From Jiella sonneratiae (GTDB lineage: Bacteria > Pseudomonadota > Alphaproteobacteria > Rhizobiales > Rhizobiaceae): a stretch of DNA of 64,000 nt. The notes beneath the pieces are model-generated. The model ran no database searches and was not told the origin of the DNA. It saw only the letters and a list, made by a program, of their open reading frames with translations. The stretch is taken from the NCBI RefSeq assembly GCF_017353515.1, contig NZ_JAFMPY010000004.1, positions 124,001 through 188,000 on the forward strand. The letters are read 5' to 3'. Below, in pieces: positions 13,220 through 17,994 of the stretch (positions are counted from its first letter, which is position 1; each line of letters starts with the position of its first letter). A program made the translations under genes and the position numbers.

Positions 13220-13996
13220 CTAATGCGCGGCGAGCACCTTGCGCAGGAAGCTCTGGGTGCGCTCGTGGGTGGGATTGGTGAAGATCTCCGAGGGCGGGCC
13301 GTCCTCGATGATCCGGCCGGCGTCGAAGAACAGCACCCGGTCGGCGAAGTCGCGGGCGAAGTTCATCTCGTGGGTGACGAGCAGCATCGTCATGTCGGTC
13401 TCCTCGGCGAGCAGCCGCATGACGTTCAGGACTTCTTCGACGAGTTCCGGGTCGAGCGCCGACGTCACCTCGTCGAACAGCATGATCTTCGGCCGCAGCG
13501 CGCAGGCGCGGGCGATCGCCACGCGCTGCTTCTGGCCGCCGGAGAGCTGTGCCGGCATCGCTCCGGCCTTGTCGGCGAGGCCCACCATGTCGAGGAGTTC
13601 CATCGCCCGCGCCTCGGCGTCGGCCTTCGAGACCTTCTGGGTCAGGATCGGGGCGAGGGTGACGTTGTCGAGCACCGACTTGTGCGGGAAGAGATTGAAG
13701 TGCTGGAAGACCATGCCGATCTTGCGCCGCATCTCGTGCAGGTGCTTCTCGTTCGCCGGGACGAGGGTCTCGCCGCGGCGCATGTGGAAAAGCTGGTCGC
13801 CGTCGACGGTGATGTGCCCCTCCGAGGGGTGCTCCAGCGTCATCAGCATGCGCAGGATCGTGGTCTTGCCCGATCCGGACGGCCCGATCAGCGCCAGCTT
13901 CTCGCCCGGCTCGACCTGGAAGGTGAGGCCGTCCAGCACGGTGAGCGAGCCGAAGCGCTTGGTCACGGCGTTGAGGGTGATGATCGGCTCGGCCAC
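13220..13996 (-). CDS. ehuA: Ectoine/hydroxyectoine ABC transporter ATP-binding protein EhuA
   Basis: A 258-residue ABC ATPase of the polar amino acid group. Walker A is 'GPSGSGKTT' (near residue 38), the signature is 'LSGGQKQRVAIARA', Walker B is 'IMLFDEVTSALD' and the switch histidine is in 'LVTHEMNFA'. It dimerises and powers EhuC/EhuD. The start is GTG, supported by a GAGGAGA ribosome-binding site four bases upstream. It is the first gene of the leftward ehuABCD-eutABC-doeAB operon. Its 5' region (13997-14147) is AT-rich and holds two direct copies of the candidate operator, which points to control by EnuR or the AsnC-type protein encoded next door. Confidence 0.92.
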   Translation of the reverse strand: MAEPIITLNAVTKRFGSLTVLDGLTFQVEPGEKLALIGPSGSGKTTILRMLMTLEHPSEGHITVDGDQLFHMRRGETLVPANEKHLHEMRRKIGMVFQHFNLFPHKSVLDNVTLAPILTQKVSKADAEARAMELLDMVGLADKAGAMPAQLSGGQKQRVAIARACALRPKIMLFDEVTSALDPELVEEVLNVMRLLAEETDMTMLLVTHEMNFARDFADRVLFFDAGRIIEDGPPSEIFTNPTHERTQSFLRKVLAAH

Positions 13997-14052
13997 GGGT
14001 CTCCTCGATCGGCGTTCGTCTGTCTCGGACGCCCTACGATGTGTCCCGGAAG

Positions 14053-14089
14053 CAAATCACGTCAATCTGTAAAATCAAATCATGACAAT
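14053..14089. promoter_or_regulatory. Candidate ectoine-regulon operator, two direct copies upstream of ehuA
   Basis: CAAATCACGTCAAT (14053-14066) and CAAATCATGACAAT (14076-14089) are direct repeats 23 bp apart, about two helical turns, in an AT-rich patch 57-93 bp upstream of the ehuA GTG. A third copy, CAAATCATGTCATT, lies in the enuR/asnC divergent gap. The shared motif and its placement suggest a binding site for one of the two local regulators. No experiment is available from sequence alone. Confidence 0.6.
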
Positions 14090-14147
14090 ATTTCCATGAC
14101 TGCATATCAATCGCGCAGCTCTGCTGCCCGGTCCGGCGCGTCGATGC

Positions 14148-15530
14148 CTAGATCGCGAGCAGCAGCGGCTCCGGCGCCGCGTGATAGAGCCCGGCGACGA
14201 CGCGCAGCCCGGCCTTCAGCTCGGCCTCGCTGGCCGAGCCGACGGCGATGCGCACCGCCGGGTGCTCGTCGCGGCCGATCTGGAAGCTGCGGCCCGGCGC
14301 GAGCGCGACGCCGCGCAGCCGCGCCTGGGCGACGAAGACCTCCTCCTCGGTGCGGCTGCGCAGCGGCAGCCAGACGTGCAGCCCCATCGGATGGGCGCGG
14401 TGGTCGATCCCCGCCAGCATCTCGGCGACGGTCGCCTGGCGGCGCGCCAGCGCCTTGCGCTGCCAGCGGACGAGATCCATCGCCGTGCCGTCGCGCACCC
14501 AGCGCGAGGCGACCTCGGCAAGCAGCGGCGTCGCGATCCAGTGGCTGACGAGATGGCGGTTGGCGACGGCCGGCATCAGCCGGTCGGGCGCGACGAGATA
14601 GCCGGTGCGCAGCCCCGGCAGCACCGACTTGGTGAAGGTCGTCACATAGAGCGTGCGTTCCGGGGCGAGGGCCGCGACCGGCGGCGGCCGGTCTTCGATC
14701 AGCGGTCCCAGCGGATCGTTCTCGATGATCGACAGGGCGTTTTCGCGGGCGACCGCGATCAGCGCCTCGCGGCGGGCGAGCCCCATCATCGAGGCGGAGG
14801 GGTTGATCGGCGAAGGCTGCAGGAACACCGCCCGCACGTCCTCCTGCCGGCAGAGCGCCGCCAGCGCTTCCGGCACCATGCCCTCGTCGTCGATGGCGAC
14901 GCCGGCCATCTTGAGGCCGAGATAGCTCGCCAGCGGCACCAGCGTGTGGTGGCCGAGGGTTTCGGTGGCGATCACCGTGCCGGTGCTCGCCGCGCTCATC
15001 ATCGCCACGGTCATGCCGGCGGTCGCGCCGTTGGTCAGGATGACGTTGCCGGGCGACGCCTCGACGCCGCAGTGGCGCAGCCATTCGACCGCCACCGCGC
15101 GGTGACCCGGGAAGATCACGTTCGGCCGGAAGGAGAGGGCGGCGCTCGCCGGCAGGTCGACCGCCATCTCGGCGAGCACCGCCTTCATCCGGTCGAGATG
15201 CATGGTCTCGCAGACCGGCTTCAGGATCGACAGGTCGATGGTCTCGCCCGGCCGCTCCTCGAGATAGGGAACGTCGCTCGCCGGCTCCTGGCGCCGCACG
15301 AAGCTGCCGCGGCCGGTCTCGCCCGAGACGAGGCCGCGCCGGATCAGCTCCTCATAGGCCCGGCTGACCGTCTGGACCGAGATCTTCAACTCGTGGGCGA
15401 GAATGCGGTGCGGCGGCAGCTGCGCTCCGTTGGCGAGGCGGCCGTCGGCGATCGCCCGGGCGATCTGGTCGGCGAGCGACTGGTAGACGGGGCGCGAGAG
15501 GGCCGCGGGATCGAGAAAGGCCATTGTCAT
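14148..15530 (-). CDS. enuR: MocR-type (GntR/aminotransferase) regulator of ectoine use, EnuR-like
   Basis: A 460-residue MocR-family regulator: an N-terminal winged helix (about 10-80, 'LPPHRILAHELKISVQTVSRAYEEL' in outline) joined to a fold-type I aminotransferase domain. The PLP lysine is K301 in 'TTFTKSVLPGLRTGY'. EnuR is known as the PLP-dependent repressor of ectoine-catabolic genes whose inducers are DoeA/DoeB intermediates. I chose the ATG at 15530, which has AAAGAG seven bases upstream, over a TTG at 15548 that would leave no divergent promoter space; an ATG at 15524 is also possible. It is transcribed toward ehuA and divergently from the AsnC-type gene. Confidence 0.9.
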   Translation of the reverse strand: MTMAFLDPAALSRPVYQSLADQIARAIADGRLANGAQLPPHRILAHELKISVQTVSRAYEELIRRGLVSGETGRGSFVRRQEPASDVPYLEERPGETIDLSILKPVCETMHLDRMKAVLAEMAVDLPASAALSFRPNVIFPGHRAVAVEWLRHCGVEASPGNVILTNGATAGMTVAMMSAASTGTVIATETLGHHTLVPLASYLGLKMAGVAIDDEGMVPEALAALCRQEDVRAVFLQPSPINPSASMMGLARREALIAVARENALSIIENDPLGPLIEDRPPPVAALAPERTLYVTTFTKSVLPGLRTGYLVAPDRLMPAVANRHLVSHWIATPLLAEVASRWVRDGTAMDLVRWQRKALARRQATVAEMLAGIDHRAHPMGLHVWLPLRSRTEEEVFVAQARLRGVALAPGRSFQIGRDEHPAVRIAVGSASEAELKAGLRVVAGLYHAAPEPLLLAI

Positions 15531-15559
15531 GAAAGCACTCTTTCGCAAATCATGTCATT
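15523..15559. promoter_or_regulatory. Candidate operator in the enuR / asnC divergent region
   Basis: CAAATCATGTCATT (15546-15559) on the plus strand repeats the motif found twice before ehuA. On the minus strand TCATGACAAT (15532-15523) is identical to ten bases of the 14076 copy and overlaps the enuR start codon. The two copies face each other about 13 bp apart. A regulator bound here could control both divergent genes and block enuR translation initiation or transcription. Confidence 0.55.
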
Positions 15560-15602
15560 CGGCAATATGGACGGCGACGCCGCCAGGGGGAACGCCAAGC
15601 CG

Positions 15603-16061
15603 ATGCCGGATATCAAGCTCGACGCCATCGACCTGAAGATCCTCGCCGCCATCGAGAAGGAGGGTCGGATCACCAAGCTGAAGCTCGCCGAGACGGTGGG
15701 GCTTTCGCCGACGCCCTGCTGGATGCGGCTGAAGCGGCTGGAACGCACCGGCCTCGTCGCGGGCTATCATGCCCGGATCGAGTGGCGGCTCATCGCGCCG
15801 CAGACGACGGTGCTCGTCGAGATCACCCTCGGCCAGCACCGCCAGGCCGATTTCGACCGCTTCGAGCGGGTGGTGCGCGCGACGCCCGAGGTGGTCGCCT
15901 GCTGGTCCGTCGGCGGCGGCGTCGACTATCTCCTCAAGGTCGTCGCGCGGGACGTCGACGCCTATCAGCGGCTCGTCGACGGCTGGCTGCAGCGCGAGAT
16001 CGGCATCGCCCGCTATTTCACCTACATCGTCACCCGCACGGTGAAGGAGGCCGAGGGGTGA
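15603..16061 (+). CDS. AsnC/Lrp family regulator of the ectoine cluster (DoeX-like)
   Basis: A 152-residue Lrp/AsnC protein. The N-terminal helix-turn-helix runs 'LDAIDLKILAAIEKEGRITKLKLAE' in outline, with recognition helix around 'LSPTPCWMRLKRLE' (35-48). The C-terminal RAM domain (about 65-145) senses amino acids. AsnC-type genes accompany ehu/eut and doe clusters, and DoeX of Halomonas elongata binds upstream of doeA; equivalence here is inference from position. The ATG at 15603, preceded by AGGGGG, is preferred over ATGs at 15552 and 15567, which would leave almost no divergent promoter. Lrp proteins bind repeated AT-rich sites, which fits the repeated motif nearby. Confidence 0.85.
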   Translation: MPDIKLDAIDLKILAAIEKEGRITKLKLAETVGLSPTPCWMRLKRLERTGLVAGYHARIEWRLIAPQTTVLVEITLGQHRQADFDRFERVVRATPEVVACWSVGGGVDYLLKVVARDVDAYQRLVDGWLQREIGIARYFTYIVTRTVKEAEG

Positions 16062-16500
16062 GCGCGTTGGTCTCGCTGCCACGAGAGATCTTGCCCCCCA
16101 GCCAGGCCCGAATGCCACGAGATCGACACGTTCGGCAGAGGACAGCAGCGGCACTCCCGCCGTGCTTGGCCGGCGGATGAGAATTGACCGAAGCCATTGA
16201 AATTGCGTTGGCGTAAGCGGCTGTAAAATCTGACATCTTGGCGGTTCGGCCGGCTGTACACTGCAATCGTGGCAAGCGATCCGGCGAGATGTGCGAACGT
16301 CGTGGGCGGGCGGCGGCGAGTCGGAAAAAGAGCGCCCCGGAGAGAGACTCTCTCGCAAAGCCGTCGACTTCAGCCCGTTCGGACTGGCGCAAGCCCCTCT
16401 TCAGCCCATCCCTCTGCCGCGGAACCCGTAGGTTCACCCTCGTGCCGGCGACGTCCGCCGGCCTTCCGGTCGCCCTGCCGGAACAGCCAGGAGGTGATCC
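16062..16500 (+). promoter_or_regulatory. 439-bp leader upstream of doeC, ending in a 12-base perfect Shine-Dalgarno
   Basis: I see no gene here. An AT-richer patch (16190-16235) contains CTGTAAAATC at 16221-16230, a 10-mer identical to one at 14067-14076 in the ehuA control region, and then TGACAT. A small palindrome GAGAGAgactCTCTC lies further on. The last twelve bases, AGGAGGTGATCC (16489-16500), match the whole anti-Shine-Dalgarno tail of 16S rRNA, directly before the TTG start of doeC. A promoter for doeC-doeD is expected here, but I cannot fix -35 and -10 hexamers with confidence. Confidence 0.5.
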
Positions 16501-17994
16501 TTGAGCGCCGTCTTCGCCCGCAACGACTTTCACCCCGACCTCGACCGCCTCGCCGACCCGCGCCTCTTTCGCGAGCAGGCCTTCGTCGACGGCCGCTGGA
16601 TCGCCGCTGCCGATCGCTCCACCTTTCCCGTGACCGACCCCGCCTCCGGCCTGACGCTCGCCCATGTCGCATCGCTCGACGCGGCCGGCGCTGAGGCGGC
16701 GATCGATGCGGCTCAGGCGGCCTTCGCCGGCTGGAAGGCGCTGCTGCCGCAACAGCGGGCGGCGGTGCTGCGGCGCTGGCACGCCGGGATCCTCGCGGCG
16801 AAACACGACCTTGCGCTCCTGATGGTTCTCGAACAGGGCAAGCCATTGTCGGAGGCGCTGGGCGAGATCGACTACGCCGCCTCCTTCGTCGACTATTACG
16901 CCGAAGAGGCGAAGCGCGTCTCGGTCGAGAGCGTCGCGAGCCATCTGCCCGATGCGGCAATGAGCGTTTCGCGCGTGCCGGTCGGCGTCGCCGGCCTGGT
17001 GACGCCATGGAACTTCCCCGCCGCCATGCTGACCCGAAAGGCCGCGGCAGCGCTCGCCGCCGGCTGCACCGTCGTCTCCCATCCTTCTGCCGAAACGCCG
17101 CTCTCGGCCCTCGCACTCGCCGAACTCGCCGACAGGGCGGGCTTTCCGGGCGGCGTCTTCAACGTCGTCACCGGCGATGCCGAGACCATCGTCGGGACGA
17201 TGTGCGCCGATCGCCGCGTCCGGGCGATGAGCTTCACCGGCTCGACCGAGATCGGCCGGCTGATCGCCGCGCGTTCGGCGCCGACGGTCAAGCGCCTCGT
17301 CATGGAACTCGGCGGCCACGCCCCGCTGATCGTCTTTGCCGACGCCGATCTCGAACGGGCCGTCGACACCGCCATCGACGCCAAGTTCGCCACCTCCGGG
17401 CAGGACTGCCTCGCTGCCAACCGGATCTATGTCGAGCGGCCGGTCTATGCCGCCTTCGCCCGGCGCTTCGCCGAAAAGGCGGCGGCGCTTCGGGTCGGCA
17501 ACGGCCTCGACGAGGCAACGCGGATCGGCCCGCTGATGCACGGGCGTGCCGTCGCCAAGGTCGAGGCGCAGGTCCGGGATGCGCTGGCGCGCGGCGCCCG
17601 GCTTCTGACCGGCGGCACCCGCCACGCGGCCGGGCCGCTGTTCTTCCGGCCGACGGTTCTCGCCGACGTGCCGGAGGCGGCGCTGATCATGCGCGAGGAG
17701 ACCTTCGGGCCGGTCGCCGCCCTGACGCCCTTCGATGCCGAGGCCGAAGTCGTCGCCCGGGCGAACGATTGCGAATACGGCCTCGTCGCCTATGTCGTGA
17801 CGAAGGACGGCGCGCGGGCCGCCCGGCTCGCCGCCGCGCTCGACTACGGCATGGTCGCCGTCAACCGCGTGAAGATCACCGGCGCGCCGATACCCTTCGG
17901 CGGAGTGAAGCAGTCGGGCCTCGGCCGCGAGGGCTCGCGCCACGGGCTCGAGGCCTTCACCGACGTCAAATATGTCTGCGCCGATCTTCGCTGA
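16501..17994 (+). CDS. doeC: Aldehyde dehydrogenase, probable aspartate-semialdehyde dehydrogenase DoeC
   Basis: A 497-residue NAD(P)-dependent aldehyde dehydrogenase of the succinate-semialdehyde type. Catalytic C303 ('SGQDCLAAN'), general base E269 ('VMELGGHAP') and N171 ('TPWNFP') are present. In ectoine catabolism DoeC oxidises aspartate semialdehyde, made by DoeD, to aspartate. The start is a rare TTG with an optimal AGGAGGTGATCC site and correct spacing. One oddity: the conserved Lys that binds the adenine ribose (usual 'VKPAE' strand) appears as His in 'VVSHPSAETP'. It lies 93 bp before doeD. Succinate-semialdehyde dehydrogenase is the alternative name used in similar clusters. Confidence 0.85.
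   Translation: MSAVFARNDFHPDLDRLADPRLFREQAFVDGRWIAAADRSTFPVTDPASGLTLAHVASLDAAGAEAAIDAAQAAFAGWKALLPQQRAAVLRRWHAGILAAKHDLALLMVLEQGKPLSEALGEIDYAASFVDYYAEEAKRVSVESVASHLPDAAMSVSRVPVGVAGLVTPWNFPAAMLTRKAAAALAAGCTVVSHPSAETPLSALALAELADRAGFPGGVFNVVTGDAETIVGTMCADRRVRAMSFTGSTEIGRLIAARSAPTVKRLVMELGGHAPLIVFADADLERAVDTAIDAKFATSGQDCLAANRIYVERPVYAAFARRFAEKAAALRVGNGLDEATRIGPLMHGRAVAKVEAQVRDALARGARLLTGGTRHAAGPLFFRPTVLADVPEAALIMREETFGPVAALTPFDAEAEVVARANDCEYGLVAYVVTKDGARAARLAAALDYGMVAVNRVKITGAPIPFGGVKQSGLGREGSRHGLEAFTDVKYVCADLR

What the first reader, a model, noticed from the sequence alone, without database searches (positions are those of the whole stretch)
14053..15559. A repeated 14-bp motif links the ehuA promoter with the enuR/asnC divergent promoter
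CAAATCACGTCAAT (14053) and CAAATCATGACAAT (14076) are direct repeats 23 bp apart before ehuA. CAAATCATGTCATT (15546), plus TCATGACAAT on the other strand (15532-15523), lie between enuR and the AsnC-type gene. AT-rich 10- to 14-mers recurring only at these control regions in such a GC-rich window are unlikely by chance and define a candidate regulon operator. A 10-mer CTGTAAAATC is also shared by the ehuA (14067) and doeC (16221) upstream regions.
Basis: partly seen in the sequence, partly recalled or inferred. Interest (0 to 1): 0.72.

Follow-up and report, generated by a model that had tools for sequence, protein, structure and literature searches.

The report
EnuR operator pair controlling ectoine genes
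The repeated short sequence is most likely the landing site of EnuR, the known switch for eating the salt-protectant ectoine; it sits on the uptake-gene promoter and again on the start of the switch's own gene, so the core is known, while the overlap with the start codon looks like a new detail.

Summary
The repeats exist exactly as described. From the window alone they are only mildly unexpected (3 of 100 shuffles give as many), but relatives settle the matter. All 66 distinct loci examined with a close EnuR (58% identity or more) carry ATTGTCATGAT and ATTGACATGATTT as direct repeats, 23 bp apart in 64 and 22 bp in 2, before ehuA or the gene that replaces it; the second box contains the -35 element. 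A strict composite pattern occurs in 36 of 199 family genomes; all 36 are among the 65 with EhuR/EnuR above the NCBIfam cut-off, and 0 of the other 134 have it. The site between enuR and the AsnC gene (doeX) is a second operator: a box2-like half plus an inverted box lying on the enuR start codon. There the rare Thr codon ACA follows ATG in 65 of 66 loci (5.7% of other Thr codons), and a TTGnnn -35 lies 34-36 bp before ATG, suggesting a leaderless, self-repressed enuR. The 10-mer shared with doeC is not conserved and is rejected. DoeX as the binder is disfavoured. New member of a known kind (EnuR/EhuR/EutR operators). No binding was tested here.

The parts
14076..14089 (-). Operator box 1 at the ehuA promoter (minus strand ATTGTCATGATTTG)
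   Evidence: no mismatch to the ATTGTCATGAT box searched for in relatives
14053..14066 (-). Operator box 2 at the ehuA promoter (minus strand ATTGACGTGATTTG), starting 23 bp after box 1; holds the candidate -35 TTGACG (14065-14060)
   Evidence: one mismatch to ATTGACATGATTT; this A-to-G change is seen only in the window among the 66 loci
14036..14041 (-). Candidate ehuA -10 element CATCGT, 18 bp after the -35
   Evidence: in relatives CATCGT lies at 17 bp in 49 of 66 loci, CATCCT at 18 bp in 6, CATCGT at 18 bp in 1, the other 10 not matched so by the scan; assignment inferred
13220..13996 (-). ehuA, first gene of the ehu/eut operon
   Evidence: NCBIfam TIGR03005, 435.3 bits against cut-off 345.4
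14148..15530 (-). enuR (EhuR/EutR), MocR/GabR-type regulator; start ATG at 15530-15528, second codon ACA at 15527-15525
   Evidence: NCBIfam NF052286, 651.2 bits against cut-off 480; Pfam GntR and Aminotran_1_2; start position from conservation
15546..15559 (-). Operator box 2-like half at the enuR/doeX region (minus strand AATGACATGATTTG), starting 29 bp before the enuR ATG
15523..15532 (+). Inverted operator box (plus strand ATTGTCATGA) covering the enuR start codon and Thr2 codon
   Evidence: ATG-ACA in 65 of 66 loci
15560..15565 (-). Candidate enuR -35 TTGCCG, starting 35 bp before the enuR ATG; no good -10 follows in the window
   Evidence: a TTGnnn hexamer at -36 to -34 in 66 of 66 loci (best match to TTGACA sought at -38 to -34); inferred
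15524..15553 (+). Candidate doeX promoter TTGTCA-18-AATCAT, both hexamers inside the operator boxes
   Evidence: the only promoter-like match in 13900-16520; shuffles mean 0.1
15552..16061 (+). doeX (asnC), Lrp/AsnC family; start unsettled (ATG at 15552, 15570 or 15603)
   Evidence: Pfam AsnC_trans_reg, HTH_24, HTH_AsnC-type; alignments to relatives begin at residue 14-23 in 48 of 66 loci and at residue 1 in 9
16221..16230 (+). 10-mer CTGTAAAATC upstream of doeC: not part of the system

Best explanation
The repeats are operator boxes of EnuR (also EhuR, EutR), the PLP-dependent MocR/GabR-type repressor encoded between them. At ehuA two boxes in the same direction, 23 bp (about two helical turns) apart, are proposed to let an EnuR dimer cover the -35 region and block transcription of ehuABCD-eut. 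In the enuR/doeX interval a second site, one box plus an inverted box, lies over the divergent enuR and doeX start regions, so EnuR would limit both its own synthesis and the doeX-doeCD side. When ectoine is imported and partly degraded, alpha-ADABA binds EnuR-PLP, EnuR leaves the DNA and all units are switched on together. Shown here: the boxes, spacing, conservation, co-occurrence with EnuR, and constraint at the enuR start codon. From the literature: repression by EnuR, the inducer, DNA binding by EnuR of other species. Inferred: binding in this organism, dimer placement, promoter elements, the leaderless enuR message.
For: enuR in the window is EhuR by NCBIfam (651.2 bits, cut-off 480). 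66 of 66 distinct loci have the composite, 23 bp apart in 64 and 22 bp in 2, with at most 3 mismatches in the 24 box positions. It follows the promoter, not the enuR 3' end: in L006 and L009 it lies with ehuA on the other side of enuR; in L016, L027, L053, L060 it precedes a TRAP-transporter-like gene and in L049 an eutA-like gene instead of ehuA (gene labels by reading, no family search). Strict pattern in 36 of 199 genomes, all within the 65 with EhuR above cut-off, 0 of 134 others, Fisher p about 5e-22 (genomes are related, so p is nominal). Looser pattern: 45 of 65 against 4 of 134. S. meliloti SM11 (L096) has both sites, and purified EnuR of S. meliloti is reported to bind its predicted sites (PMC5924519 passage). 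In three genomes with EhuR about 8 kb from doeX the composite, at 22 bp, lies between eutB and doeX. Publications: EutR regulons include eut, doeC, doeD, doeX, ehu (PMC5320631, section 12 read); EnuR represses and alpha-ADABA is an inducer (PMC8739950, PMC5924519, passages).
Against: No binding experiment for this organism. The literal published palindrome ATTGTn6ACAAT is not found at the boxes in any of the 66 loci; two Phyllobacterium loci (L054, L057) have a literal match 82 bp before enuR, outside the boxes. 20 of 65 EhuR-positive genomes lack even the looser pattern and 4 genomes without EhuR above cut-off match it. Second doeX copies in two EhuR-positive genomes (L094, L095) have no box near them. 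Window box 2 carries TTGACG, seen in no other of the 66. Operator and enuR are linked in one cluster, so co-occurrence partly reflects joint inheritance; one search scored only up to 7 candidates per genome.
Confidence: 0.92

Rival explanations
1. The boxes are binding sites of the AsnC-type protein DoeX, which wraps or activates the same promoters.
For: DoeX of Halomonas is reported to bind the doe control region and asnC mutants of R. pomeroyi lose activation (PMC5924519 passages). All 66 loci with the motif also have a doeX homologue in reach.
Against: Genomes G067 and G103 (no EhuR above cut-off) and G160 (borderline, 483.8 against 480) hold doeX-doeC-doeD with 70-71% identical DoeX but no box in the 10 kb around it and no genome-wide hit of either pattern. 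Second doeX copies in L094 and L095 also lack boxes. The box spacing is of the kind described for MocR regulators.
Confidence: 0.05
2. The repeats are only conserved promoter hexamers (TTGACA-like) and AT-rich leader, not a regulator's operator.
For: Box 2 contains the -35 hexamer and the whole region is a promoter.
Against: Conservation runs over 11-13 bases twice at a nearly fixed 23 bp step; box 1 lies outside the core promoter; an inverted copy falls on coding sequence.
Confidence: 0.02
3. The ATG-ACA conservation at enuR reflects translation initiation (A-rich second codon, leaderless start), not an operator.
For: A-rich early codons are a general trend (recalled); only 6 of 66 enuR starts have a Shine-Dalgarno tetramer, against 26 of the 36 ehuA starts that could be placed.
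Against: The conserved block extends upstream of ATG (C at -1 in 66 of 66, T at -2 in 63 of 66) and spells the inverted box 1; codon 3 takes 14 different codons.
Confidence: 0.25

Closest known systems
EhuR (EnuR) operators of Sinorhizobium meliloti (Yu et al. 2017, J Bacteriol; paper not held; abstract recalled)
   Same: Same boxes and the same neighbourhood at enuR in S. meliloti SM11. The recalled abstract reports EhuR footprints at the -35 region of the ehuA promoter and the +1 region of the ehuR promoter, which is the layout found here.
   Different: The window belongs to a relative of Jiella and Aurantimonas; its ehuA -35 is TTGACG; its enuR-side box is AATGACATGATTT, where S. meliloti has ATTGAGCTGATTT.
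EutR regulons of Suvorova and Rodionov 2016 (PMC5320631, passages and section 12 read)
   Same: Same regulator group and regulon content (eut, doeC, doeD, doeX, ehu).
   Different: Described there as a palindrome, quoted as ATTGTn6ACAAT in PMC8739950; here the sites read as a direct repeat (ehuA) and an inverted pair over the enuR start.
EnuR of Ruegeria pomeroyi DSS-3 (PMC8739950 and PMC5924519, passages)
   Same: Two closely spaced predicted sites over the -35/-10 of the uptake and catabolic operon; repressor with PLP and alpha-ADABA.
   Different: Transporter genes are uehABC; enuR there is reported to have a promoter that does not respond to ectoine (PMC5924519).

Membership tests
EnuR/EhuR/EutR operator | Cognate regulator EnuR encoded at the locus | tested here: met
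   NF052286, 651.2 bits against cut-off 480
EnuR/EhuR/EutR operator | Sites in front of ehu/eut and doeX/doe genes, overlapping the promoter core | tested here: met
   promoter elements by sequence only
EnuR/EhuR/EutR operator | Same box architecture as the S. meliloti ehuA and ehuR promoters, reported to be bound by EhuR | tested here: met
   L096 against the window
EnuR/EhuR/EutR operator | Literal published consensus ATTGTn6ACAAT | tested here: not met
   0 of 66 at the boxes. Not treated as defining: the S. meliloti sites as printed lack it too, and the source allows variation
EnuR/EhuR/EutR operator | Binding by EnuR and release by alpha-ADABA | not testable with these tools
   needs protein-DNA assays
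DoeX (AsnC/Lrp) operator | Motif present at doeX-doeCD clusters regardless of EnuR | tested here: not met
   absent in 3 of 3 clusters whose genomes have no (2) or only borderline (1) EhuR
Leaderless, self-repressed gene | -35 about 35 bp before ATG and no Shine-Dalgarno | tested here: inconclusive
   -35 in 66 of 66, SD tetramer in 6 of 66, but the -10 is weak (2-3 of 6 matches) in 38 of 66, the window among the weak ones, and no transcript data

The most novel reading that the evidence does not exclude
In the EnuR group one operator half-site is fused with the enuR start codon: the repressor sits on +1/ATG of its own leaderless message, and this DNA use forces a rare synonymous codon (Thr ACA) to stay fixed across the close EnuR clade (65 of 66 loci), with the same ATG-AC start in 12 of 12 EnuR genes only 42-52% identical.
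Probability: 0.6. Interest if true: 0.42.

Novelty: new member of a known kind. Interest (0 to 1): 0.3.

Why it matters
It identifies the probable control sites of ectoine uptake and breakdown in an alphaproteobacterium, refines the published palindromic EnuR motif for this clade into a two-box direct repeat at ehuA and an inverted pair over the enuR start, and offers a clean case of a DNA-binding site that may constrain codon choice at a start codon. It makes the open question of how EnuR reads differently arranged boxes, and how EnuR and DoeX share one short interval, directly testable.

Tried and rejected
10-mer CTGTAAAATC near doeC: of the 98 loci held at that time, 6 match: four are the window's own copies (L001-L004), the others L034 and, elsewhere, the distant locus L073. 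In the doeX-doeC alignment of the window and five relatives it is in 1 of 5 relatives (L034); L035, L037 and L038 lack the stretch and L039 differs there. Rejected as a conserved site.

Published palindrome ATTGTn6ACAAT (also tried as ATTGn8CAAT): no match at the boxes in the 66 close loci; matches elsewhere in 3 of 66 (the window far from the site; L054 and L057 82 bp before enuR); among 12 distant loci, 1 (L076) matches ATTGn8CAAT, 88 bp after enuR and once more further on.

First co-occurrence count by EnuR protein (53 of 199) was dropped as a negative set: its first look scored at most 8 candidates per genome and missed EhuR in G016, G119 and G189. The family search replaced it, although it too scored at most 7 candidates per genome.

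DoeX without EnuR first looked like a mixed result (3 of 6 genomes with the motif); those three proved to have EhuR about 8 kb away.

Counterexamples kept: L027 has ATG-ACG and no box 2-like half at enuR; 13 of 66 loci fail the permissive box 2-like expression there, 12 of them by about one letter as judged by eye. The second S. meliloti system on an accessory plasmid (L098, 51% identical regulator) starts ATG-ACG with an SD-like GGAGAG, without the fusion. For the ehuA -10, 10 of 66 loci did not give CATCGT or CATCCT at 17-18 bp in the scan, L006 and L009 because their operator does not follow enuR.

Search for print on a start-codon operator of enuR: searches listed nothing on it; the library is open-licence only and I read passages, so this is weak evidence.

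Full report
Observation. The 14-mers fill non-coding or start-codon sequence in an ectoine cluster: eutC, eutB, ehuD, ehuC, ehuB and ehuA to the left on the minus strand, enuR on the minus strand, then doeX (AsnC type), doeC and doeD on the plus strand (doeC and doeD by position and literature; NCBIfam gives only general dehydrogenase and aminotransferase families). By the window alone the repeats are mildly improbable: 3 of 100 shuffles match the count of three, and the TCATGACAAT piece alone is not significant. Genome-wide the exact pattern occurs only here, 3 of 3; at one mismatch one extra copy lies inside a coding frame; at two mismatches there are 48 hits in all against 4 for the reversed control, not inspected further.

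Relatives. The search for related loci returned 27 loci, the nearest being Jiella, Aurantimonas and Fulvimarina records at 84-88% EnuR identity; the genome search gave 53 of 199 family genomes with EnuR matches. I gathered 68 close loci (EnuR at least 58% identical), dropped 2 duplicates, and kept 66 including the window, all with different enuR sequences; 12 distant loci were kept apart. The loci are related by descent, so counts are not independent events.

The ehuA operator. All 66 carry box 1 (ATTGTCATGAT) followed by box 2 (ATTGACATGATTT), 23 bp from start to start in 64 and 22 bp in 2, with at most 3 mismatches in total. Box 2 holds the -35 TTGACA; CATCGT lies 17 bp further in 49 of 66 loci, CATCCT at 18 bp in 6 and CATCGT at 18 bp in 1, with 10 not matched so. 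The window's box 2 reads ATTGACGTGATTT, so its -35 is TTGACG, with CATCGT 18 bp on. The element stays with the promoter: it lies with ehuA on the other side of enuR in L006 and L009, precedes a DctP-like TRAP transporter gene in L016, L027, L053 and L060, and an eutA-like gene in L049 (gene labels read from the translations).

The enuR/doeX operator. Upstream of enuR a box 2-like half, about ATTGnnnTGATTT (AATGACATGATTT in the window; a permissive expression was used), starts 28-30 bp before the enuR ATG in 53 of 66 loci; 12 of the other 13 differ by about one letter by eye and L027 lacks it. Facing it is the inverted box TC-ATG-ACA(AT), which is the enuR start. C precedes ATG in 66 of 66, T precedes that in 63 of 66, and codon 2 is ACA in 65 of 66, while codon 3 takes 14 different codons. 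Elsewhere in the same genes ACA is 94 of 1646 Thr codons (5.7%). In a codon alignment, codon 2 is the most constrained of 66 columns of conserved four-fold residues (65 of 66 loci the same codon; median over columns 64%). All 12 distant EnuR genes also start ATG-AC (10 ACA, 2 ACT), as does a Leisingera gene at its annotated start (ACA). A second S. meliloti system does not share it (ATG-ACG with an SD-like sequence). A TTGnnn hexamer begins 34-36 bp before ATG in 66 of 66, and an SD tetramer is present in only 6 of 66, against 26 of the 36 ehuA starts that could be placed. This is the layout of a promoter whose +1 is the start codon. The -10 is weak in many loci (2-3 of 6 matches in 38 of 66), and the window has no good one, so leaderless transcription is an inference. 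On the other strand a promoter scan finds a single candidate, TTGTCA-18-AATCAT at 15524-15553, both hexamers within the operator boxes, which would serve doeX. The doeX start is unsettled: alignments begin at residue 14-23 in 48 of 66 loci and at residue 1 in 9, and a promoter at 15524-15553 would leave only the ATGs at 15570 or 15603 (inference).

Which protein. The strict composite pattern occurs in 36 of 199 family genomes, once each, reversed control zero. EhuR above the NCBIfam cut-off is found in 65 of 199. All 36 are among the 65; 0 of the other 134 have it (Fisher nominal p about 5e-22). A looser pattern gives 45 of 65 against 4 of 134; the four look unrelated in the core by eye. Genomes with a good DoeX but no EhuR above cut-off (G067, G103) or a borderline one (G160) have no site in the 10 kb around doeX, and two second doeX copies (L094, L095) in EhuR-positive genomes have none either. 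G016, G119 and G189, where EhuR is about 8 kb from doeX, have the composite between eutB and doeX. This favours EnuR over DoeX, within the limit that operator and regulator are inherited together.

Known work. EutR regulons were predicted to include eut, doeC, doeD, doeX and ehu (PMC5320631, section 12 read), and MocR operators are mostly direct repeats or direct plus inverted repeats spaced by helical turns (passages). EnuR of R. pomeroyi binds a 48 bp promoter fragment with two predicted sites and has alpha-ADABA as inducer (PMC8739950, passages). enuR disruption derepresses the clusters in S. meliloti and R. pomeroyi, and enuR transcription is reported substrate-induced in S. meliloti (PMC5924519, passages), as expected for self-repression. 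I recall, without having the paper, that the S. meliloti abstract reports EhuR footprints at the -35 region of ehuA and the +1 region of ehuR; S. meliloti SM11 carries the same two sites. The finding is therefore a new member of a known kind. The overlap of the operator with the start codon and its codon constraint were not found in my literature searches, which are far from complete.

Rejected. The doeC 10-mer is not conserved. The literal ATTGTn6ACAAT palindrome is absent from the boxes of these operators; two Phyllobacterium loci have one nearby.

Noticed in passing
window 16339-16354: A near-palindrome GGAGAGAGACTCTCTC upstream of doeC is present, with small changes, in the window and all five aligned Jiella/Aurantimonas-type relatives; function unknown, possibly a doeC leader element or another regulator's site.
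   Followed up: no
L016, L027, L053, L060, downstream of enuR: A DctP-like TRAP transporter replaces ehuABCD behind the same EnuR operator.
   Followed up: partly
ehuA leaders of many loci, e.g. L023, L028, L054: An inverted repeat GTCTC...GAGAC surrounds the ehuA Shine-Dalgarno region in many rhizobial loci; not folded or tested.
   Followed up: no
window genome contig 20, 24210-25553: A second EhuR-like MocR protein (412.7 bits, below the cut-off of 480) of unknown target.
   Followed up: no
L098 (S. meliloti M270 accessory plasmid): A second ehuBACD with a divergent EnuR-like gene that starts ATG-ACG with an SD-like sequence, near transposase and integrase genes.
   Followed up: partly
L034 and L039, between doeX and doeC: An insert with CCTCGGGCTTGTCCCGAGGATC-like sequence in both, absent from the window and from L035, L037, L038.
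   Followed up: no
L054 and L057, 82 bp before enuR: A literal ATTGTn6ACAAT palindrome (ATTGTGGATAGACAAT) in the enuR/doeX interval of two Phyllobacterium loci, outside the boxes described here.
   Followed up: no
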